Source: Stygiolobus caldivivus (GTDB lineage Archaea > Thermoproteota > Thermoprotei_A > Sulfolobales > Sulfolobaceae). From it: 64,000 nucleotides of DNA. The notes beneath the pieces were generated by a model that saw nothing but the letters and a program-made list of their open reading frames with translations, made no database searches and was not told the origin of the DNA. The position numbers were made by a program, and so were the translations under genes. Positions within the stretch are counted from its first letter, which is position 1, and the number at the start of each line of letters is the position of its first letter. The stretch covers positions 1,178,001-1,242,000 of the forward strand of contig NZ_AP024597.1 of assembly GCF_019704315.1 (NCBI RefSeq), written 5' to 3'. Positions 3,884-46,432 of this stretch are shown in pieces.

Positions 3884-5195
3884 TAAAAGTCAGACTATAA
3901 AATTTTTTTCCTTTAGTAATTTTACCCTACTACGTTTTTCAAAGGTGTTTTTTATCCCTCTTTGTCTAGGGCTTTTTCTAACTAAGAGGTGACATTATAC
4001 GGCTAATGAAACACGTTATCTAATTGAATAAATTTTTATTGTTATTATAGTCTATATCTCATTGTTTGTATATGTTATGTATATTGTGTGTATATAATTA
4101 TTAATTAAAAAATCGTCATATATTATAGTCCGGTACAGTTGCGGCTAAGGACTATCAAGGCTAATATGTGAATACCTCTTCACGGTCTAAAGACTAACTA
4201 TTAAGAGGCACAGATAACGGCCTTATCGGTCGCCTTAACTATACTCCGATATGGCTTAGTTATGGGCTGGGAAAGAATATTTTAGAAAAACTCCGCTTTA
4301 GTCTTCTGATGTAATGGTTAAGTTATTACAGCAATATTTCTAGATTGGCTTGCAATAAAGAGACCATTACTAGTAGTCACCGTGATTATTGTAATCTTCA
4401 ATAATCATTTTTAATCCGACGCGAGCTCTAGACATGTTCTCAGGACATCTTCTCGCTGTACAGTCTTACAAGCACTTTTTACACGAGGAAACGCTCAGCT
4501 AGGTTTCAGGTTCGTAAATATGGCAAAATACGTGTGTATCCTTTAGCCATGTACTAGGTCTGCGGTCAGACCGTTAGGGCAAAGAACTAAGAAAGGCCGG
4601 TAAAGACGCGGCACTTAGTCCCCGTCACCGGTACCCAGCCCCTAACTTTATCGACGGGTCTTCTAGTCTATCCTATCATAAAACGTTTGCACAAAACCCT
4701 CCACGTTTGACATGTTTTTACTAATTTGACGTGCGTCACTAAATACTTCACGGCTAGGCCCAAAACCTTATGTACTCACCATGAGACGGAGTATATAAGC
4801 GCTGACGTAAATGTTATGGTAATACTAATAAGTTATACATTATTATTTTAATTTAATTAAATACTCCTAGGGTAGCCATAGTGCCTTCTAAGAGGTATAA
4901 TTTTTAATTAGTGAAAATCTTTACACAAAAAGAATATGCTGAGAGGAGGTTTTATAAGTCCTAATGCGAATAGGGGAATACTAATACCTAGCGGTAACAC
5001 TACTAGGTTGGTTTTCAAGACAATATATAGCGACCGGTTCCTACAGCCTTTCACGCGTACTTTGTGGATTATGATTTTGTCCGTAATAGAGGAAACGGCA
5101 TTTAATATAACTTTTTTTCACACTAACTAAATTGTTGTCCGCTCTCTGGTTTTACGGCCAGTGGCCTCTATTCCCTAACTTACCGTGCACGGGGT
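3884..5195. other. Long gene-free region with an IS end fragment
   Basis: About 1.3 kb with no supported gene. It is A+T-rich at 4000-4120 and stop-rich throughout. It contains a weak MITE-4-like match near 4790-4830 and a fragment of an IS6-type end at 5101-5140. A 64-codon frame at 4936-5130 runs into that IS end and is probably fortuitous. Confidence 0.5.
5101..5140 (+). mobile_element. Remnant right end of an IS6-type element
   Basis: TTTAATATAACTTTTTTTCA and then CACTAACTAAATTGTTGTCC align with one gap to the right terminal repeat of the element at 29926-30803 (30761-30800). No transposase remnant lies next to it, so this is a solo end left by a deletion or an old excision. Confidence 0.6.
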
Positions 5196-9181: not shown

Positions 9182-9710
9182 ATTACCAACGGTAGGGTAT
9201 TTTACTGCGTTAGACCGGTTATAAACATATAAAAACGTAAAAACTTGGGCGGAATTCCCGTTAACATTATCGTCTATAAATTTACTGATGATCTTTCTTC
9301 ATAAGCAGTATAAATATTGAGTATATTTACATTTTGCCAAAAATTTTTGGAAGTGTAAATAGCTCTATAACTACACTATGGGAGTGGACACAGTGTGGTC
9401 ACTGAGCTATAAAGACCGTTCACTGAACTTAAGGCGTCTTGAGTCCTTATCACACACCGTTACTACAGGACAGGGTCCCTCTCGTGTGCAATTTATAGTT
9501 TAATAACGACGCTATGACCCCTCTGGAGCACACTATAATTTAGACCCGTTAGAGGCATTACTACTGTTATCCGGTTAACTTGGAAGGGGTGTAAGACGGG
9601 TGTTCGGAAAGCTGACCGAGGCTAAAGGGATTGATCGGACCGGTAGGTAAACCGAGGGTATTAGAAGAGCTTCGGAAAAAACTTAAAAACCCTAAAAAAC
9701 ATAGCCCCAT
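9182..9710. other. Gap with a MITE-1 copy
   Basis: Holds the element at 9389-9516, an A+T-rich stretch at 9290-9360, and the promoter of the ABC ATPase gene (ACTTAAAAACC at about 9681-9691, 25-30 bases before the ATG at 9711). Confidence 0.5.
9389..9516 (+). repeat. MITE-1 copy (128 bp)
   Basis: The left end CACAGTGTGGTCACTGAGCT and right end AATAACGACGCTATG form the imperfect inverted repeat that defines the family; the length equals that of the copy at 29795. The flanks GGAGTGGA and ACCCCTCT do not match, so any target duplication has decayed. Confidence 0.65.
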
Positions 9711-16624: not shown

Positions 16625-17015
16625 TATGGTGTCGTCACCGGGCTACAAAGTCTCTTTATATTACTTGAGCAACAGTTATTCTACCTTTCCTTGGTAATAC
16701 CAAACTACCGGTATTGCTGATAAAATTTTTAGATCCACATCGGTTTTATTAAAAAATGTGAAGTACTAAAAGGAGCTGGATACTGCAAAGGGCGAGTTCA
16801 GCATTGGGGAGCTCACTAACCTGAAGAGCGTGTAGGAGCTTCTCTAGTTTGTTGAAAATTGTTTATAAGATGCACGGGCTCTGATAAAAATTTTTAAGTC
16901 ACGATAAAGCGGAATAGACTGCTAACTTGGGACACGTTAAGTCCTTATCTCTCACCGTAGCGTCGGGGTAGAGGCCCCTATCACGTTTACTTTATAGCTT
17001 AGTAACGGTACTGTG
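16625..17015 (+). repeat. Enlarged MITE-1 copy (391 bp)
   Basis: The left end GGTGTCGTCACCGGGCTACA and right end TTTATAGCTTAGTAACGGTA are the MITE-1 inverted repeats. The inner right part (ACACGTTAAGTCCTTATCTC) aligns with the 29795 copy, but about 260 extra bases lie between about 16672 and 16930. So another sequence has been inserted, or this is a longer ancestor. The insert contains two near-identical TGATAAAATTTTTA motifs (about 16718 and 16883) but no usable frame. Confidence 0.6.
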
Positions 17016-24578: not shown

Positions 24579-27500
24579 TCAACCCCTCCTGCTTTCAATA
24601 ACGTTCCTGGACAACACTTCCCTGACATTACCTGAAACCTTGGTGTCGAGCTCCTTGACGATTTCCGTGAACTCCTTTAACAGCCTCAGGTCTTCCAAGA
24701 CTTTCTCCACCTTAAGGCCTAAAGCCTCGTTTACGACCTCGTCCCGCCCCATGTCTACGACCTCGTATACGGGTAAGTTAGGGTTAAGCTTCATCTTTAC
24801 TAACACTTTCTCCCTGAAGTTCGACGAAATTGACTTTGAGAGCTCCGAGACCTTCTTCTGCCACTCTTCTCCTCTCCACTCCAGCCCCAGTTCTAACACC
24901 GCCTTTATAGGCCTCCCGAACTGGTCCCTGTTAAACCCGCCTAACTCCAACTCCTTTACCTTATGTACCATGTAGTTCAGCACTGCCGAATAATAGTACA
25001 CGACGTCACTGTCCTTACTCTCCAGGACAACTACGTGGTGGTCGATAAACACCCCGTCGGATTTTTTACACATGTCCTCGAGTACCTCCTGCGTTATGAC
25101 GGCAGAGACGAAAGTCCTCTGGTTCCTGTACAGTAGTAGGTTAGCCTTTTCCTCACAGCTTATAGTTGGCTTCTTAGGTATTTTCAGTACACGGAGGGTA
25201 TCGTTAAGCCCCTCCCACCCTTTATATAGCTCTTCTAGGGTCTCCCTCCTAGTTATGAGCTTAAAGGCCCTTATGATAGCAAAGGGGTAGATCACTTTCA
25301 ACGGGATATACCAAGAGGTGACCCACTCTACCTTACCGAAATAGGTCACCGAACCCTTGAACCCTAAGGGAGAGATCGCTGCCCTCCTGGTGGTCTCGTC
25401 GTACCCCCTGACCGTAACGGTCAGCGGGATAACGTCCTTCTTAGTGGAGCCGGTAGGGCCACCGGAAAAGGTAGGAGAAATCACGTCACCTTCTAACCGG
25501 ATATTTTCTACCCCGTTGAGGCGTATTTCCCTGCTCTTTTCTAAGTACTCGTCCACGTTTAATACGTGGTCCTCAATAGATATGCCGTCGTCTTTCAAGT
25601 TGGGGTCTTGGTCTAAGTGTGAGTCCTTGTCTAACCTGACCGAGACGCTCTTACACCTGACGTCGAAGCCCTCCCCCTTCTTCAGGACTGCGAGGCTGGC
25701 GGGGACCCCGTGGCCGAATACGTCTCCTAGATAGACTATTTCGCCCTTAGTGTCCCACCTCTTCATTACCCTAAATGTCAGGAGTTTTCCGGCACCGTGC
25801 GACGTGGAAAACCCGCTGTAAGATTGCCCCGCAGGTAAGACTATACCTACATACCCCCCGCCCGACATTAAGGAAAGTATTACGTCCAAGAAGACCGCTG
25901 ACACGTCACCCTTTGAGATTGCCGTACCCGGGATCTTAATACCGCTTAACATGCTCTTCTTCACGTAGTCCTTTACGCCTTCAGCCCACTTAGACCCCTT
26001 AGGTAGGGTGTTTATGACTATCCAAGGGGGGTTTGTGACCACCACCTCCGGCTGTATAGCGGGTAGAAAGACGTCAATAAACAGGCTGGAGGTTATCGGG
26101 ATCCCCCACACGTGGTCGCCGTACTTCTCTACTAGCTCCTTCAAGTAGTTTGAGACCTTACCTGAAGTGAAGTTTGACGCTATTTCACAAGCTGTAGCCA
26201 ACGGCTTATCTCCCTCTTCTACCTTTTTACAAGCCCTTAACTCGCCCTTACTCAGGTACTCGGAAATCACCATCTCAAAGAGCATCACCGCCTTTAGCGC
26301 GTCGCTCTTCTTCAATTTCCTCACCTTGTCAATAAGGGCAGTCCTCAACAGGGGGTTTGTAACCGATGACATGATCTGTTTTAATTCCTTGACTACCTCT
26401 GTATAACTCTTTACTACCGGCCCTATGAAGTCCCCCCAGAATATTAAGGGAGTACCGGGCGGTAATTTGGGCTGAGAGAACTTAAAGATACCTTCCTTCT
26501 CCCTCTGTAAGTAGATGTACGATATGATAAGCTCAGCCCTAGCTAGGGCTACTGCTAAAGGGTTTATGTCTATACCAACTATCTCGTAATAAGCTTCGTC
26601 AGGGTCTTTACCCTCCTCTTTCACTTTCTTATAAAAAGCTGAGACCAGGAACCTACCGCTACCGCAAGAGGGGTCTAAGACTATCCCGCCCCTTATGGGG
26701 GCACCCATCTCCTTAAGCTCTTTTAGGGCTAACTCCGTCAACCACCAAGGAGTATAGTATTCCCCCACTTTATACCTGAGGGACTTCTCCACAAAGTCCT
26801 CGTAGAGGTGGCTGAAGACGTCTATACTGGGCTTACTCCCCCAGTTAAATATGTAGAGGTAGGAGACTATCTCGTCGCAGACAGGTTTTACCAGTTCCTT
26901 GGTCTCCCCGTAGTTCCACCAGACCAGTTGGGGGAGTGAGGTCTCATATGGCTGGAGTAGTTCTCCCGAACAGACTTTTAAAGTGTCTGTTATGTCTTTG
27001 TTTAAAGTCTTGGACAAGACGGAGTTAACTACCATTTGGAGGAGTGTGTGTATAGCGTAGAGTTTAGTCACCTCTTCCTCTTTCAGCCCGGAGTATAACC
27101 TCAGCATTATGTCCTTATATGACAAGTAGAGGGGGTGGTCCTTATACCCCTCAAGGAGACGGGCTATAAAGTCAGTGTAGCCTAGGACGGGCGAAAAGAC
27201 TTTACTTATTGAAGGCGGGTCTATTTCGACACCTAAGTCTATTTCGCTGAAGGCTTTCGTTAGGACTCCCCTTAACTCCTCCGATGACGCTATGGCTTCT
27301 TCAAGCGCGCCGGCCTCGTAAGCTTTCTCGTCCACCTTTACAAACGCTACCCTCTCCAGGTTTGCGTCCCTTATGTCCCAGTTGAGCCCGTCTGTAATTA
27401 TACAGTACCTCGCAGTCTCTCTAAAGAACTGTTGGACGTATTTCCTCAGCTGGGCCAGGGCTTGTTCGAACTCGGCTTGACTGGTCTTTACTTCAACTAT

Positions 27501-27707
27501 GACCTGCCCGTTAAAGTACCATATATCGGGCCTGTCTAAGCTGGTGTCTTTCTTGGGAGATACGTTAACCCTCCTCACCAGTTCGTATCTCTTCTGCTTT
27601 AACAGTACTTTAATTTCCGTCGACTTGTCTTCGTCTATTACCTCTTCAAGGACTTTTAACAAAGCCCTATCCACATGGATGAGTACCTCATCGTGACTAT
27701 ACCTCAT
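24579..27707 (-). CDS. Type IIG-like restriction-modification enzyme (nuclease plus N6-adenine methyltransferase)
   Basis: One 1042-residue chain. The N-terminus carries a PD-(D/E)xK nuclease site: D61 in RPDIWYF, then VIVEVKTSQ with E72 and K74. The methyltransferase has motif I DPSCGSGRFL at about 343-352 and motif IV NPPW at about 558, separated by an unusually long insert of about 200 residues with helical character. The C-terminal 450 residues should be the target-recognition part and end in a coiled coil. It modifies adenine N6 and cuts unmodified DNA. No separate S, M or R subunit lies nearby, so it is probably a stand-alone Eco57I-like system. TTAATAA at about -28 is a plausible TATA box. 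Confidence 0.85.
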   Translation of the reverse strand: MRYSHDEVLIHVDRALLKVLEEVIDEDKSTEIKVLLKQKRYELVRRVNVSPKKDTSLDRPDIWYFNGQVIVEVKTSQAEFEQALAQLRKYVQQFFRETARYCIITDGLNWDIRDANLERVAFVKVDEKAYEAGALEEAIASSEELRGVLTKAFSEIDLGVEIDPPSISKVFSPVLGYTDFIARLLEGYKDHPLYLSYKDIMLRLYSGLKEEEVTKLYAIHTLLQMVVNSVLSKTLNKDITDTLKVCSGELLQPYETSLPQLVWWNYGETKELVKPVCDEIVSYLYIFNWGSKPSIDVFSHLYEDFVEKSLRYKVGEYYTPWWLTELALKELKEMGAPIRGGIVLDPSCGSGRFLVSAFYKKVKEEGKDPDEAYYEIVGIDINPLAVALARAELIISYIYLQREKEGIFKFSQPKLPPGTPLIFWGDFIGPVVKSYTEVVKELKQIMSSVTNPLLRTALIDKVRKLKKSDALKAVMLFEMVISEYLSKGELRACKKVEEGDKPLATACEIASNFTSGKVSNYLKELVEKYGDHVWGIPITSSLFIDVFLPAIQPEVVVTNPPWIVINTLPKGSKWAEGVKDYVKKSMLSGIKIPGTAISKGDVSAVFLDVILSLMSGGGYVGIVLPAGQSYSGFSTSHGAGKLLTFRVMKRWDTKGEIVYLGDVFGHGVPASLAVLKKGEGFDVRCKSVSVRLDKDSHLDQDPNLKDDGISIEDHVLNVDEYLEKSREIRLNGVENIRLEGDVISPTFSGGPTGSTKKDVIPLTVTVRGYDETTRRAAISPLGFKGSVTYFGKVEWVTSWYIPLKVIYPFAIIRAFKLITRRETLEELYKGWEGLNDTLRVLKIPKKPTISCEEKANLLLYRNQRTFVSAVITQEVLEDMCKKSDGVFIDHHVVVLESKDSDVVYYYSAVLNYMVHKVKELELGGFNRDQFGRPIKAVLELGLEWRGEEWQKKVSELSKSISSNFREKVLVKMKLNPNLPVYEVVDMGRDEVVNEALGLKVEKVLEDLRLLKEFTEIVKELDTKVSGNVREVLSRNVIESRRG

Positions 27708-28180: not shown

Positions 28181-29422
28181 TTATTTAGTTATTACTTTAA
28201 TATTCCTAGCCTTCACGAACAACATTGTATAAATTATTACACCTAAAATTCCTATATATCTTAAAATGTTTAATATTCCAATTTCTGAGCCTATTTCCGA
28301 AACAGTGATTACTGCTATCGAATATACTAGTGAGAAAATAAACTCCATAAATGGTATTATGGTGCGTATCTTCTCCTTTTCGATGAGCGTAATTAAAAAG
28401 GAGTTTAGATAAATAAACGAGGAATTCTCTAATGTAAGTATTGTAAATACTCCTATCATGAATATGGGGAAGACAGAGATAACTAAAGATAATAATATAA
28501 ATAATATAGATATACTAATTCTGTAAAATAATATATATTCGCTAAATGTCTTAACGTTTAATATATTGGAAATATATGTAGCTAAAATCATTGATATGGA
28601 TAAGAATATAAGATAGATAGAATAGCTAAAATTGAACATATTTGTAATACCCAATAGATAGAAAATGATAGGAGATACTGAAGTTATAACAGGATATACT
28701 ATATAATCGCTCACAAGGAAAAGTTTTTCAGTATTGTTCATCTTCTGTAGTGACTTAAACTGGCTTATAAATGAAGAAATAATAGTGGAACTTTCTACAG
28801 TAGGATAACGTAACTTTAATTTAAAGAAAAGAGTAATTATCATAAAAATTAGTAATAATGCAAATCCCACGCTAAAAATTAATAACCCGTATATATTCTC
28901 TAGCAAAATTATAGTTATAACTATTATAGCCTGGTTTATTTGGCGTAAGGAGCTTAAGATTCCCTCAAGATTTCTTAGTTTATCAAAATTAATATTTGTA
29001 CTTTTTAATAAATATAAGTTGACCGGTTCTCTAAGTATAAATAGGGAAGCAAATATTCCTTGAAGTATTGCATAAATAGGAGCAAAAATATAATTAGCCA
29101 TAACTAGGCCTACAACAAATGCCAAAGTAATAATTTGTAATAAAATTACTGTAAGATCGTATTTCTTCAAATTTTTTACAGAATTATTTATTGCAGAGGA
29201 AAATGGGAGTAAAAAAGATGGAATTCCACTTAATGAGGTAACAACAATTAACCCTATATCTACTAAACTCTTAGAAGAAAGATAGATATAGCCTACCAGC
29301 AAATAATAAAGTATTAAATTAACGGGTAATAGTTGAGTTATAAAAAGAACCTTTACTGTATCGTTTTGTTTTAGCACTTCAAGAGCCTTAATAATTTCTC
29401 TAATCTTTCCCATATTTTTCAT
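28181..29422 (-). CDS. A+T-rich MFS-type exporter, probably acquired by transfer
   Basis: The 413-residue protein consists almost wholly of 10-12 hydrophobic segments separated by short Lys/Asn-rich loops (for example KNLKKYDLTV, KSTNINFDKLRNLEG), like MFS permeases of the drug or peptide efflux type, though the canonical GxxxDRxGRR loop is not conserved. The DNA is far more A+T-rich than flanking genes, with Ile/Ser/Asn codons ending in A or T, which points to recent transfer. A 39-codon ORF overlaps its start. The chosen start, ATG 29422, is followed by a second ATG at 29413. Substrate unknown. Confidence 0.75.
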   Translation of the reverse strand: MKNMGKIREIIKALEVLKQNDTVKVLFITQLLPVNLILYYLLVGYIYLSSKSLVDIGLIVVTSLSGIPSFLLPFSSAINNSVKNLKKYDLTVILLQIITLAFVVGLVMANYIFAPIYAILQGIFASLFILREPVNLYLLKSTNINFDKLRNLEGILSSLRQINQAIIVITIILLENIYGLLIFSVGFALLLIFMIITLFFKLKLRYPTVESSTIISSFISQFKSLQKMNNTEKLFLVSDYIVYPVITSVSPIIFYLLGITNMFNFSYSIYLIFLSISMILATYISNILNVKTFSEYILFYRISISILFILLSLVISVFPIFMIGVFTILTLENSSFIYLNSFLITLIEKEKIRTIIPFMEFIFSLVYSIAVITVSEIGSEIGILNILRYIGILGVIIYTMLFVKARNIKVITK

Positions 29423-29519
29423 ATATCACCATCCCTAGACTAATAATATTTTCATTATTTCTAGCAGCTTCATACGGGCATAATAGTTCGGCAGGAAGAT
29501 TATCTATTTTCACTACCAT
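29400..29519 (-). CDS. 39-residue ORF overlapping the start of the exporter
   Basis: ATG at 29519 to TAG at 29400-29402, in a different frame and overlapping the exporter's first 23 bases, giving MVVKIDNLPAELLCPYEAAR and then NNENIISLGMVIYEKYGKD. It shares the A+T-rich composition of the exporter and is preceded by an A+T-rich region (TAAATTATTATAGAC) usable as promoter. It could be a small peptide substrate or precursor exported by the neighbouring permease, or a leader that couples translation. It is too short to test for coding by eye. Confidence 0.4.
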   Translation of the reverse strand: MVVKIDNLPAELLCPYEAARNNENIISLGMVIYEKYGKD

Positions 29520-29566
29520 ATTACATCACTTAAATTATTATAGACTATAAACAGCTTTTATTTTTT

Positions 29567-29670
29567 AATACCCCGTCAGTTAATGAAGGGCAACAGTGCC
29601 GTTAGTGTAAAGGTAAAAATTTGCTGAGCGAGTGAAATTGACGTTGCCCTTTGGCTCCTGACAAAGTATA
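29567..29670 (+). repeat. MITE-2 copy (104 bp)
   Basis: Core 29575-29662 runs from GTCAGTTAATGAAGGGCAAC to GTTGCCCTTTGGCTCCTGAC, an inverted repeat of about 20 bases extending outward to AATACC / AAGTATA. The inner GTAAAGGTAAAAATTTGCT is conserved with the copies at 50557 and 56691. No gene inside. Confidence 0.8.
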
Positions 29671-29786
29671 AAACATAATACATAAAAACTTTTTAGTATA
29701 GTGCAAAAATTCTCTCATAAAAGGACATAAACATAAAACAAATATTCATTATAGAGTCATATTACAATATTTAGTTATTTATAATG

Positions 29787-29930
29787 AGCGTGGAGATAGT
29801 GTCGTCACTGAGCTATAAAGTCTCTTTATACTGCTTAAGGCGTGTTAAGTCCCTGTCCCGCATCGCAGGTCCTGGATGAGGTCCATTTCATGCTTAGTTT
29901 ATAGCTTAATAACGACACTATCAGCGTGGA
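29787..29930 (+). repeat. MITE-1 copy (128 bp) with perfect 8-bp target duplication
   Basis: The element proper is 29795-29922, from GATAGTGTCGTCACTGAGCT to TTAATAACGACACTATC, flanked on both sides by AGCGTGGA (29787-29794 and 29923-29930). The right copy of the duplication overlaps the first bases (GTGGATAACAATTTC) of the IS6-type element, so the MITE moved into the end of that element. This is the youngest copy of the family here. Confidence 0.85.
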
Positions 29931-30803
29931 TAACAATTTCATTAATTTGAAATATTTACATTTATCATCACCCCCTTGCCTAACAAATACACAGGAGCGT
30001 AAAGCACATTATACACCATGAAAAACACAGACAACCACCTCACCAACGTGTACTTATTTGCGTCCCAAGGGAAGTGGGAGTCCATGGGCGACAACCTATG
30101 CTTCAAACTCCTGAACCCTTGTTCCGCATAATCCCTTTCCCCGAACTTCACCCTCTTGTGCTCCACATTAAGCCACGAGAAAGCGTTATATACCGTGGCA
30201 CCGTCGTGCAGGTAGACGACCTTGTCGACCCTCACGTTAAATACCCTCCTCGCCTCCTCTTCGACCCCACCCATGCTTGCGAGCACAACGAGTACGTGTA
30301 CACCGCTCCTCAAGCTAGTGACCATGAAGAAGGGTATAGCCTTGGTATTAACGTCCCTACCTTGGTATTAACGTCCCTCACCACCCACACGTAATAGTAT
30401 TCGCCCTTCACGGTTCTCACCTCAGTCTCGTCAATCGCATATTTCCCGCTCAAGGGGACGACGTACTTCACGTAGCTCAACCTCCTGAAATAGTAGAGCA
30501 GTGTCGAGTGGGGTAGGTGTGTCCTCCATGAGGAGAGCCCTGCTAAGTACTCGGCAAGGGCGTGAGCTATTGTCTCTCTTGAGAAAAACCTCGGGTTAAG
30601 GTTAATATACTCCATTCAATATCATTTGGGTGAGCACTGGGACTTTCCACCTAGTCCCCATGTCCTCACCTCGAGTATTACTCCCGTGTTCACCCTAAAA
30701 AAGTATTATGTAGTTTCTCCTCAAGAAGAATTTTCCTCTTCTTCAAGAAGAGAAACCACGTTTAATATAATTTATTTCAGATTAACTAAATTGTTGTCCA
30801 CAC
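29926..30803 (-). mobile_element. Inactive IS6-type insertion sequence (ISC774-like)
   Basis: The terminal inverted repeats are GTGGATAACAATTTCATTAA on the left (29926) and, reading inward from 30802, GTGGACAACAATTTAGTTAA on the right, continuing as TTTGAAATA versus TCTGAAATA. About 878 bp with one transposase gene on the minus strand, disrupted by a 20-bp tandem duplication. Target duplications are not clear, because a MITE has inserted at the left end; ACTATCAGC versus ACTCTTAGC at the two sides is only a partial match. Confidence 0.85.
29942..30615 (-). pseudogene. Frameshifted DDE transposase of IS6 type
   Basis: Two frames join into one protein of about 217 residues, the usual size. The upstream half (from ATG 30615) ends ...VVRDVNTK with the first catalytic Asp in YAIDETEVRT; the downstream half begins in PFFMVTSLRSG and holds the second Asp in YLHDGATVYN and the Glu in YAEQGFRSLKHR. 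The break is a 20-base tandem duplication at 30341-30380 (CTTGGTATTAACGTCCCT in both units), which shifts the frame by two. Removing one unit restores VNTKAIPFFMVTS exactly. All DDE residues are otherwise intact, so inactivation is recent. Confidence 0.9.
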
Positions 30804-30809
30804 TCTTAG

Positions 30810-30825
30810 CGAAAAACTTATAAAG
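30810..30825 (+). promoter_or_regulatory. TATA box for the propeller gene at 30849
   Basis: AACTTATAAAGC lies about 30 bases before the ATG, only a few bases beyond the right end of the insertion sequence, so the gene has kept its own promoter. Confidence 0.5.
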
Positions 30826-30848
30826 CTTACCAAGTTATATAGCTTAAG

Positions 30849-32951
30849 ATGAGGAATACTATATTATCTATATTATTGTTGCTCTCTGTATTGGCACCGT
30901 CTACGATCGAAGTAACTTCCCAGACTATGCAGACTGTTCCAGTACAAGTTATCAAGCTCTACGCGGGCCCAGAAATTAGTTCATTAGTTTCGGCCGCGGT
31001 TGACCCAAGCAACGGCTTCATTTACGCCGTTAATCCAAGCCAGAACGACGTGGTGATATTCGACCCTTATAACAACTCATTTGTAGGCGCAATAACTGTG
31101 GGCGTCAACCCAGCAAACATTACGTACTTCAACGGTTACTTCTACGTAGTTAATAAGGGCTCAGGGACGATTAGCGTGATAGACCCAGGTACTAACAAGG
31201 TGGTGAAGACGATTTACGTTGGCGGTTCCCCGATAAAAGTATTCTTATCTAAGTACGGCTACATATACGTTGTCTATAGTTGTAATGTAGAGGTACTCAA
31301 CCAGAATTGGCAGAAAATCGGGACGCTGTTTAATGGTTCCACTATTTGCTCCATAGTTTATGACCCTAGTACTGGGCTACTATACACGATATGGTACTCA
31401 TCAGACGCTGGTATATTAGTGTCGGCTGTGAACGGCACAAGTATTGTTGAGAACGGTACGTGTTACATACTCCCTTATAATCCCGATATGTTAGTGGTAG
31501 GCAAAAACTATATTTATGGTCTATTATATCATGCTGTATATGAGTACAATCCCTATAATCTCTCTTCCTCTAACATTGTACATTTGGTTCAAGCACCCTT
31601 TGAGACGATTGTACTCGTTGGCACAGTATACGCTGACGGCGAGATCTATGGTTACGATCAGTTTACTAATTCTATTTGGGTAGTTAATATAACAAATAAG
31701 AGTTGTAGCCTCTTAACGGGCTTACCCGTTTCATTAGGCGAGCACATTAACGACTTAATCTACGACCCTAATACGAGTATGCTATATGCCCTAGCAGGAC
31801 TTCCGAACCCCATAATCGCGGTTAACCCCAAGACAGGCAGTTACATAGCTGTCGGGACACAGATACCGCCAGACTACATATTATACAATAACGTCACTGG
31901 GTTGCTTTACGTTGCAGATTGTCAGTCAAACGTAATATATATCGTGAAAGGGGACGAAGTCGCTGGGTTTATCCCAACAGTGCTTTACCCAGCTGCGTTG
32001 GCTTACAACACTCATAACGGCGTAATTTACGCGATTTCCGGGAACGAATTGGTCGCGGAGAACCCGTATAACGGCAGCGTCATATGGAAGGGGACTGCAG
32101 GGGAGGGTGCAGTCGCGCTCCTTTACGACAGCGTTAACAACGTGCTATACGTGGCAGATAATAGCTCTAACTTGGTCCTAGCAATAAGCCCGGAGAACGG
32201 GTCAGTAATTTCCGCAATACCCGTCAGCAATAGCCCAACAGCCCTCACTTACGACCCGCAGAACGGGCTAGTATACGTTGCTAATTATAATAACAACTCC
32301 GTATCAGTAATCAACGGTACGCAAGTCGTAAACAACATAGTGTTACCCTTCAAGCCCACTGAACTTGCCTTCGGTAATGAGGAGCTGTTCGTGGGCGGGG
32401 GCAACGGGAGCGTGAACTACGTGGCTATAGTAGAGGGCAACAAGGTGGTCAGCACTATTAAGGCCGACATAACGCCATTACAAGTCGCCTACTATGACGG
32501 CTATGTGTTTGTTTACGGTATTACTATCAACAACCACATGATCTGCGGCACATCCAAGATTATCGCCATTAACGCTAACACCGGAAAGGTTGTTAAGGAG
32601 GTCTCGATAAACGTGACCAGCGTAGAGGCATCAGTCACGGTGGTCAATGGGGTTATGTACGTCGCCTCACCGACCTATATCGTCAATGAACCAGTCAATT
32701 ACAACATGATATACGAGATACCGATGAACGAGCTCATACCGACCATAGCAGTTACCGCTACCGCTACCACTACGCCAACAACGACTATCACCACAACAAC
32801 GACGCCCGTGACTACCCCGCAGACCTTACCGACGCCGTCAAGCAGCGTGCCCACTACCAGCAGTTCCGGCCTCCCGTTGCTGGTAATAGTAGGGGTCATA
32901 GTAGTAATAGCGATTATTATAGGTGTAATGCTCGCGTTAAGGAGAAGGTAA
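30849..32951 (+). CDS. YVTN-type beta-propeller surface protein with C-terminal anchor
   Basis: The 700-residue protein has a signal peptide (residues 1-25), then repeated 40-45-residue blades of the pattern GFIYAVNPSQNDVVIFDPYN, GYFYVVNKGSGTISVIDPGT and LVYVANYNNNSVSVINGT, i.e. YVTN/NHL-like propeller repeats that make one or two seven-bladed domains. A Thr/Pro stalk at about 635-670 and a membrane segment (LPLLVIVGVIVVIAIIIGVM) with tail LALRRR follow. It is displayed on the cell surface; propellers of this type bind proteins or sugars, and no catalytic role is evident. Confidence 0.85.
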   Translation: MRNTILSILLLLSVLAPSTIEVTSQTMQTVPVQVIKLYAGPEISSLVSAAVDPSNGFIYAVNPSQNDVVIFDPYNNSFVGAITVGVNPANITYFNGYFYVVNKGSGTISVIDPGTNKVVKTIYVGGSPIKVFLSKYGYIYVVYSCNVEVLNQNWQKIGTLFNGSTICSIVYDPSTGLLYTIWYSSDAGILVSAVNGTSIVENGTCYILPYNPDMLVVGKNYIYGLLYHAVYEYNPYNLSSSNIVHLVQAPFETIVLVGTVYADGEIYGYDQFTNSIWVVNITNKSCSLLTGLPVSLGEHINDLIYDPNTSMLYALAGLPNPIIAVNPKTGSYIAVGTQIPPDYILYNNVTGLLYVADCQSNVIYIVKGDEVAGFIPTVLYPAALAYNTHNGVIYAISGNELVAENPYNGSVIWKGTAGEGAVALLYDSVNNVLYVADNSSNLVLAISPENGSVISAIPVSNSPTALTYDPQNGLVYVANYNNNSVSVINGTQVVNNIVLPFKPTELAFGNEELFVGGGNGSVNYVAIVEGNKVVSTIKADITPLQVAYYDGYVFVYGITINNHMICGTSKIIAINANTGKVVKEVSINVTSVEASVTVVNGVMYVASPTYIVNEPVNYNMIYEIPMNELIPTIAVTATATTTPTTTITTTTTPVTTPQTLPTPSSSVPTTSSSGLPLLVIVGVIVVIAIIIGVMLALRRR

Positions 32952-45786: not shown

Positions 45787-46432
45787 GTCTAGTAATAATT
45801 CGCTTAAAGTTATATTAAACATTTTCGTAATAACCAGTGAGTGTCATAAGTTATTTAGTTAATTAGATATAAATTATTTAAAGTATAAATTCAGTCTTTA
45901 TTCCATAAAAATATTGTCTTTTAGAGGCGTAAAGCTGAGGCATTTTTTACTTTTTATTAAAATTTTTATTAACATAATTAAACTAAGGGCAATTCATGTC
46001 CCTTTATGATTTCTATTTTTCTAATTATGGTGATTACAACCACTAATTGAGCACATGATAATATTAATGTATAGTACGTGTAAAGACGTAAGAGGTGAGA
46101 TTATAACTAAGTTTATACAGGGCGACTTTCCACATAAGAGAGCGTTTATATTCATAACGATCACCTCAGTGACCCCCTTATTTATGGAGATAGGTATGGT
46201 GCCGTGATTAAGTCACAAATTCTGGAATCAACTTTCTCTCCTATAAGCATAAATGTGCTTACCCTTTAGGACTTATCTGATAAAGCTATGACGGTTAATT
46301 TAGGGAAAGATATAGATCAGCTCATTGACACATACGGAGTAACAGAAATTTTCTAGATATTAAGAGAACTAAATATAGTAACTGATAATCTAAAATAAAA
46401 GGATAGAAAAGAGAAAAAAAGAATATCTAACT
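45787..46432. other. A+T-rich gap with a MITE-3 copy
   Basis: Contains the element at about 45987-46264. No gene seen; the remainder is A+T-rich. Confidence 0.45.
45987..46264 (+). repeat. MITE-3 copy, diverged
   Basis: The left end GGGCAATTCATGTCCCTTTA with TTTCTATTTTTCTA aligns to the family end at 55336. The core TATAGTACGTGTAAAGACGT is shared; the right part AAGTCACAAATT matches 55499 onward. Ends approximate. Confidence 0.5.

What the first reader, a model, noticed from the sequence alone, without database searches (positions are those of the whole stretch)
29787..29930. 128-bp MITE with a perfect 8-bp target duplication inserted in the end of an IS6-type element
AGCGTGGA flanks the element on both sides and the right copy belongs to the terminal repeat of the IS. 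The order of events is therefore readable: IS first, MITE later. Related copies at 9389 and 16625 lack visible duplications and are older. The autonomous parent of this 8-bp-duplicating family is not in the window.
Basis: seen in the sequence. Interest (0 to 1): 0.55.

Follow-up and report, generated by a model that had tools for sequence, protein, structure and literature searches.

The report
MITE lodged in an IS6 end
A 128-base parasitic DNA element sits in the tip of another mobile element in an archaeal genome, and its larger relatives have hit the same spot in that kind of tip again and again, which suggests that one transposon family uses the end of another as a preferred landing site.

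Summary
A 128-bp MITE (29795-29922) lies between perfect 8-bp copies of AGCGTGGA inside the end of an ISC774-type IS6 element. An unbroken IS6 relative in the same genome shows the empty site.

The missing parent was found: an IS1-family element of about 796 bp with the same ends. In this genome I found only decayed copies; intact ones (242-244 aa transposase) occur in other genera of the family.

The unexpected part is the target. In three related genomes, 12 of 28 recent IS1-type copies (12 of all 42 read) sit in an IS6-type end, 11 at exactly the window's position and one a base away. The 12 host sequences are at most 91% alike, so these look like separate events. Seventeen ordinary sites have exact 8-9-bp duplications, 10 of them with TGTTR directly beside (background 0.4%). 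The IS6 end carries that motif in register but attracts far more insertions than the motif predicts.

The duplication re-creates the IS6 end except its first base. Many old copies carry IS6 tips on both sides, suggesting later loss of the IS6 body. Bacterial precedents exist (IS4321/IS5075 in Tn21); I found none for IS1-family elements in archaea.

The parts
29795..29922 (.). 128-bp MITE with IS1-family ends, no ORF of 50 aa or more
29795..29819 (+). left terminal inverted repeat of the MITE
   Evidence: matches ends of the IS1-type element
29898..29922 (-). right terminal inverted repeat of the MITE
29787..29794 (+). left copy of the 8-bp target duplication AGCGTGGA
29923..29930 (+). right copy of the 8-bp target duplication; rebuilds the IS6 terminal repeat except its first base
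29786..29794 (+). severed outer 9 nt of the IS6 end (GAGCGTGGA)
29931..29935 (-). TGTTA (complement of TAACA), the target motif directly beside the duplicated 8 bp
   Evidence: motif statistics
29923..30805 (-). body of the IS6/ISC774-type element, 92% identical to an uninterrupted copy (L038)
30788..30805 (-). other terminal repeat of the IS6 element, exact GAGTGTGGACAACAATTT
30310..30615 (-). IS6 transposase, N-terminal fragment
   Evidence: NF033588, E 1e-39
29942..30325 (-). IS6 transposase, C-terminal fragment
   Evidence: NF033588, E 3.1e-42
30340..30378 (.). tandem duplication (period 20, 2.0 copies, 100% match) in the transposase frame, near the border of the two fragments
9384..9515 (+). 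older MITE copy (71% identical to the window MITE)
16626..17007 (+). older MITE copy split by 266 bp of other DNA (matching halves 16626-16669 and 16936-17007)

Best explanation
The element is a non-autonomous derivative (MITE) of an IS1-family insertion sequence. Shown: it shares the outermost 20-29 bp with that IS, is flanked by an 8-bp duplication, and lies at one position of an IS6/ISC774-type terminal repeat. Inferred: the IS1-type transposase bound both MITE ends and joined them to a target it prefers, 8 bp adjoining a TGTTR motif. The IS6 end (read outward AATTGTTG|TCCACACT|C) offers that motif in the right register, and has a further attraction not explained by the motif. Because the duplicated 8 bp are positions 2-9 of the IS6 repeat, the insertion leaves the IS6 with its end restored but for the first base, while the MITE keeps a 9-nt IS6 tip on its other side. 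The transposase probably came from an IS1-type copy that has since decayed in this lineage.
For: Ends: blastn of the MITE against four IS1-type copies matches only the ends (20-29 nt, 83-95%) apart from exact 10-mers. Parent: about 796 bp, intact 242-244-aa transposases above the curated IS1-family cut-off (107.3, 105, 110.8 bits; cut-off 100). Duplications: exact 8-9 bp at 17 ordinary sites of 42 copies read. Motif: TGTTR exactly beside the duplication at 10 of these 17, background 33 of 7452 positions, P about 5e-20. Hot spot: clean insertion in an IS6-type end in 5 of 8 (G013), 4 of 15 (G014) and 3 of 5 (G030) recent copies; expected under 0.03 each even if only TGTTR sites count. Independence: IS6 sequence beside the 12 insertions is 41-91% identical pairwise, IS1 gene in both orientations (9 and 3); among the outer flanks the only match at E 0.01 is one 18-nt stretch (L147/L153, two genomes, E 0.005, both strands searched). 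Empty paralogous site L038. Two MITEs of another genus (L193, L196 of G030) sit at the same position. The junction 'element end + IS6 repeat' gives 22 matches in 7 of 31 genomes, the reversed control 0; at least two of the 22 (L198, L199) show no element end there.
Against: No orthologous empty site: the one other genome held of the genus gave only a weak match to the neighbouring gene (E 9.9e-5). The window IS6 has no visible 8-bp duplication at its outer edges, so its history is disturbed. No intact transposase of this IS1 group was seen in this genome (L042: 188-aa frame; others with stops), but more distant IS1-family proteins (36-39% identical) do have open frames of 257-331 aa there, so which enzyme moved the MITE is inferred. 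The exact motif is absent at 7 of 17 ordinary sites. Many old copies have GAGTGTGGA-like sequence on both sides, which could be read as part of the element. The 28 'recent' copies were grouped after I had seen most flanks; over all 42 copies the share is 12.
Confidence: 0.85

Rival explanations
1. AGCGTGGA on the left is the element's own outer end (GAGTGTGGAGATAGTG is an extended terminal repeat), and its match with the IS6 end on the right is coincidence of two elements that share a tip.
For: Six of the seven full-length IS1-type copies of this genome carry GAGTGTGGA-like tips inverted on both sides, one (L042) as part of a perfect 30-bp inverted repeat.
Against: At 17 ordinary sites the exact duplication abuts the element ends directly and the flanks are unrelated to the tip. 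The window repeat is direct, not inverted, and has the same unusual C on both sides. 7 of 21 MITE copies keep a recognisable 8-bp duplication directly at their ends.
Confidence: 0.07
2. The hot spot is an illusion: one IS6::IS1 composite was copied many times by the IS6 transposase.
For: IS6-type ends are multicopy in these genomes and two nested examples keep a whole IS6 transposase frame (244 and 235 aa).
Against: The 12 nested IS6 sequences differ pairwise by at least 9%, outer flanks are different, both IS1 orientations occur, while the 15 recent IS1 copies of G014 are 99-100% identical.
Confidence: 0.04
3. The clustering in IS6 ends is survival, not choice: insertions elsewhere are harmful and lost, IS6 ends are harmless.
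For: IS6 copies are dispensable DNA (inference). PMC2246112 (passages) reports transposase genes enriched beside recently active IS in S. solfataricus and proposes safe landing regions.
Against: Survival would spread insertions over the IS6 body and all intergenic DNA; here the 12 insertions are at the tip (11 at the same base, L164 one base further out). A sevenfold intergenic bonus (assumed, not measured) would leave expected counts under 0.2 per genome. I did not search IS6 bodies for insertions.
Confidence: 0.1
4. The IS6 element arrived second, next to a MITE already present.
For: The window IS6 lacks its own target duplication.
Against: It would require the MITE's left flank to hold by chance the outermost 9 nt of the same IS6 variant; the uninterrupted paralogue L038 explains the arrangement directly.
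Confidence: 0.03

Closest known systems
IS4321/IS5075 (IS1111 group) in the ends of Tn21-family transposons
   Same: An IS that targets the terminal inverted repeats of another transposon again and again.
   Different: Different transposase class (DEDD, RNA-guided); here an IS1-family element and its MITEs, an IS6-type target, 8-bp duplications, archaea. Seen as a reference title and a passage on the IS4321 target in PMC11187229.
IS231A in the ends of Tn4430
   Same: DDE element with a hot spot in another transposon's terminal repeats.
   Different: IS4-family element of Bacillus. Recalled; one search shows only a reference title on IS231A target consensus and DNA bending.
Sulfolobus MITEs SM1-SM4, SM3A, SMN1
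   Same: Short multi-copy non-autonomous elements of Sulfolobales moved in trans by an IS (PMC3718332 and PMC10969869, passages).
   Different: SM3A is assigned to ISC1058 and SMN1 to ISC1733; this family has IS1-type ends. Sequences of SM1-SM4 were not compared directly.
ISSte1 of plasmid pTC1 (IS6 family)
   Same: IS6-type element of 762 bp with 16-bp ends GTGTGTGTCCAACAAT and an 8-bp duplication (PMC4390865, passages), close to the IS6 ends here.
   Different: In the passages seen it is not a landing site for an IS1-type element.
ISC774 / NF033588 group
   Same: The interrupted element's transposase matches this model (144.3 and 136.1 bits for two fragments; 294.5 and 314.8 for two intact relatives).
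   Different: The window copy is frameshifted and its end interrupted. PMC6807381 (passages) lists ISC774 with duplication not determined and argues that archaeal members do not belong in IS6/IS26; PMC7986276 (passages) keeps one family.

Membership tests
MITE | short, no coding capacity, terminal inverted repeats | tested here: met
   128 bp, 25-nt arms at 88%, no ORF of 50 aa
MITE | multi-copy in the genome | tested here: met
   32 matches, about 20 near full length, 68-93% identical
MITE | target duplication of the parent's size | tested here: met
   8/8 here; at least 6/8 in 7 of 21 copies, 0.8 by shuffling
MITE | ends shared with an autonomous element | tested here: met
   blastn matches at the ends, 20-29 nt
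IS1 family (parent) | transposase matches the curated family model above cut-off | tested here: met
   three intact proteins of related genomes 105-110.8 bits, cut-off 100; the decayed copy of this genome 92.9, below it
IS1 family (parent) | about 700-800 bp and 8-9-bp duplications (range recalled) | tested here: met
   790-796 bp in 28 recent copies; exact 8-9 bp at 17 ordinary sites of 42 copies
IS1 family (parent) | catalytic activity of the transposase | not testable with these tools
   no experiment
IS6 family, ISC774 type (target) | transposase matches family model | tested here: met
   window fragments 144.3 and 136.1 bits, each below the cut-off of 200; intact relatives 294.5 and 314.8. 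Membership of archaeal elements in IS6 is disputed in PMC6807381 (passages)
IS6 family, ISC774 type (target) | 8-bp duplication | tested here: inconclusive
   present in L038 (GTTCAAAT both sides), not visible for the window copy
SM3A of Sulfolobus | moved by ISC1058, i.e. shares its ends | tested here: inconclusive
   ends match an IS1-type element; ISC1058 assignment of SM3A from PMC3718332; SM3A itself was not compared

The most novel reading that the evidence does not exclude
The IS1-type element is a specialised rider on IS6 elements. Its transposase recognises the IS6 terminal repeat as a site, lands so that the 8-bp duplication rebuilds the IS6 end (the carrier may stay mobile), and then, by an adjacent deletion into the equivalent site at the other IS6 end, removes the IS6 body and remains bounded by the two IS6 tips at the old IS6 site. 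Copies with tips on both sides and an outer 8-bp duplication (L155 8/8, L167 7/8, L200 7/8, L048 6/8; 4 of 12, shuffles reach this with p 0.0004) would be the end products.
Probability: 0.3. Interest if true: 0.65.

Novelty: new variant of a known kind. Interest (0 to 1): 0.5.

Why it matters
Where a transposon lands decides how much harm it does. Here one family lands in the tip of another, a site where it may harm neither the cell nor its carrier, and the same spot was hit in 12 apparently separate events in three genomes. That gives a defined, short target (an 18-bp terminal repeat with TGTTG in register) on which IS1-family target choice could be tested. It helps to order events in archaeal genomes, and is a warning for annotation: the GAGTGTGGA tip can make one element look like part of the other.

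Tried and rejected
Rfam scan of 29000-31500: nothing at gathering score. MITE against phage and plasmid records, distant mode: no match. One named-genome scan with the transposase: 12 relatives; the best full-length one, from Metallosphaera yellowstonensis (81%, L071), showed no exact duplication. Same-genus genome for an orthologous empty site: only a weak match to the neighbouring gene.

Idea that the extended tip belongs to the IS1-type element: rejected for the recent copies because ordinary sites lack it. Idea that nested copies are one event copied by IS6: rejected (one search compared outer flanks on one strand only; one search repeated it on both). A weight matrix from the 17 ordinary sites puts 11 of the 12 IS6 targets in the top 0.05-2.2% of background positions and L164 (junction shifted by one base) at 39%: the motif helps but does not account for the preference. 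The first permutation test of outer duplications had a wrong boundary for L042; one search corrects it, same conclusion. In one search the boundaries of seven of the 12 two-tip copies were set by hand, the set of 12 was chosen by eye, and for L004 (92 bp, clearly wrong), L008 and L030 (doubtful) the automatic MITE boundaries were kept in the 21.

The genome searches score a part of their candidates (for example 27 of 63 for G013, 40 of 62 for G014) and some lists were cut, so copy counts are lower bounds.

Papers: nine searches listed no report, by title or abstract, of an IS1-family element or MITE targeting IS6 ends in archaea; of the listed papers I saw only passages of some. Filee 2007 was asked for and not held; Redder 2001 and Blount and Grogan 2005 were seen only as references. 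Absence from print is not shown.

Full report
What is there. The window lies at 1,178,001-1,242,000 of a single 2.958-Mb contig; 31 genomes of its family are held. At 29795-29922 there is a 128-bp element with 25-nt inverted arms, flanked by AGCGTGGA on both sides, the only two occurrences of that octamer in the window. To its right lies an IS6 element of the ISC774 type whose frame is split near a tandem duplication of 20 bp. Its terminal repeat is exact at the other end, 30788-30805. An uninterrupted relative, L038, 92% identical, has GAGTGTGGTCAACAATTTCATTAATTTGAAATATTTAC where the window has GAGCGTGGA-[MITE]-AGCGTGGATAACAATTTCATTAATTTGAAATATTTAC. So the MITE entered between bases 9 and 10 of the IS6 end and duplicated bases 2-9.

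The family. The MITE has 32 matches in its own genome, about 20 near full length at 68-93% identity. Among the candidates scored in 31 family genomes, one near full-length match lies outside (G015, 71%); the others are short matches to the ends. 7 of 21 copies, the window copy included, keep at least 6 of 8 matching flank bases directly at the ends, against 0.8 when flanks are shuffled between copies (0 of 5000 shuffles). The octamer is therefore best read as a target duplication.

The parent. Searching with the ends led to an IS1-type element. In this genome it survives in seven full-length copies (the other six 65-85% identical to the best one); the frames I saw are broken or shortened. More distant IS1-family proteins with open frames of 257-331 aa are also present (36-39% identical). 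In the family, relatives at E up to 1e-20 occur in 19 of 31 genomes and 7 of 11 genera (this includes the distant ones). Intact proteins of 242-244 aa from G013, G014 and G030 score above the curated IS1-family cut-off. The MITE shares only the ends with it, 20-29 nt.

Where the parent lands. I read the flanks of 42 full-length copies: the 19 of G014, 12 of G013 and 8 of G030 that span both ends, plus one each of G019, G009 and G028 (L170 of G028 was dropped because its second end was not found). I recent: in G014 the 15 copies at 99% or more, in G013 and G030 the 8 and 5 with an undamaged frame; the grouping was made after most flanks had been seen. Of these 28, 12 sit in an IS6-type end with a duplication exact in 11 and 7/8 in L153; 10 are at ordinary sites with exact duplications; 4 have an IS6 tip on one side only; 1 (L155) has inverted tips on both sides; 1 (L145) has neither tip nor duplication. 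Of the other 14, 7 have exact duplications at ordinary sites and none a clean IS6-end insertion. The 12 targets differ: 160 nt of IS6 sequence beside them are 41-91% identical pairwise and the IS1 gene lies in both orientations, 9 and 3; among their outer flanks the only match at E 0.01 is 18 nt between L147 and L153, from two genomes. Two of the three nested IS6 hosts whose frames I listed keep whole frames (244 and 235 aa), one a shorter one (156 aa). A pattern for the junction gave 22 matches in 7 of 31 genomes and 0 for its reversed control; at least two of these (L198, L199) are not junctions, and some are MITEs, such as L193 and L196 of G030 at the same position as the window's.

Target motif. 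The IS6 end suggested the test: TGTTG directly beside the duplicated 8 bp. At 17 ordinary sites TGTTR occurs in exactly that register on one strand in 10, while 33 of 7452 flank positions do so (P about 5e-20). A looser version formed after looking at the same sites gives 13 of 17 against 8.7% and is partly circular; even the exact test was run after I had seen the sites. Seven sites lack the exact motif. The window site has it (TAACA at 29931-29935). The motif does not account for the IS6 preference: if all TGTTR sites were equal, 0.03, 0.02 and 0.01 recent insertions in G013, G014 and G030 should lie in IS6 ends; 5, 4 and 3 do (the IS6-end counts 46, 16 and 32 come and include interrupted ends; the G014 genome size was rounded up). 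What else attracts the element (a longer sequence, bending, bound IS6 transposase) is unknown.

Consequence for the target. The duplication restores bases 2-18 of the IS6 repeat; only the first G becomes the C that ends the MITE or IS. That such IS6 ends still work is not shown.

Tips without a body. Twelve copies, chosen by eye, carry IS6-like tips inverted on both sides with no IS6 in between, some of them degraded; six of the seven full-length IS1-type copies of this genome are like that, and the seventh (L043) has one tip. Outside the tips 4 of 12 keep at least 6/8 matching bases (p 0.0004 by shuffling), so these were probably IS6 insertion sites; of the other eight, seven match in only 1 or 2 of 8 and L046 in 5. 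Two readings remain: the IS1-type element deleted the IS6 body by an adjacent deletion into the equivalent site of the other end, or two IS1 copies, in the two ends or at different places, recombined. A third, that the tip-bounded unit moves as such, fits the copies with outer duplications but not the others.

Comparison. Targeting of transposon ends by another IS is known in bacteria: IS4321 and IS5075 in Tn21-type ends (reference title and a passage in PMC11187229) and IS231A in Tn4430 (recalled; one search shows only a reference title). A Sulfolobus IS6 element with similar ends and an 8-bp duplication is described (ISSte1, PMC4390865, passages); whether archaeal members belong to IS6 at all is disputed (PMC6807381, passages). 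Sulfolobus MITEs SM3A and SMN1 are assigned to ISC1058 and ISC1733 (PMC3718332, passages). Nine paper searches listed no description of this pairing, but main older papers on Sulfolobus IS were not available to me.

Verdict. The finding itself is an ordinary, well-read nested MITE. Its context is more interesting: repeated landing at one position in another transposon's end.

Noticed in passing
window 16626-17007: MITE copy split by 266 bp of other sequence; its outer flanks look by eye like degraded IS6 tips on both sides.
   Followed up: partly
window 5129-5146 (-): Relic of another IS6-type end (2 mismatches); one search found only 56 nt of similarity there.
   Followed up: no
window 46196-46247 (-): Fragment resembling an IS1-type element end (79% over 52 nt, E 5e-5).
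   Followed up: no
L153, L143, L154 (G013, G014): The IS6-type targets here look like ~210-bp IS6-derived MITEs (paired ends about 190 bp apart), so one element's parent sits in the other's MITE.
   Followed up: partly
L163 and L205 (G030): A recent and an old IS1-type copy at different places share a 34-nt flank with one mismatch on the side without an IS6 tip, possibly another repeated element.
   Followed up: no
L161 (G030): IS1-type copy inserted into an element with ATAGTGTCGTCATTAGGG ends, i.e. close to a relative of itself.
   Followed up: no
window 24579-27707 (-): 1042-aa ORF with an NPPW motif as in DNA methylases, perhaps a restriction-modification protein (by eye and recall, not searched).
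   Followed up: no
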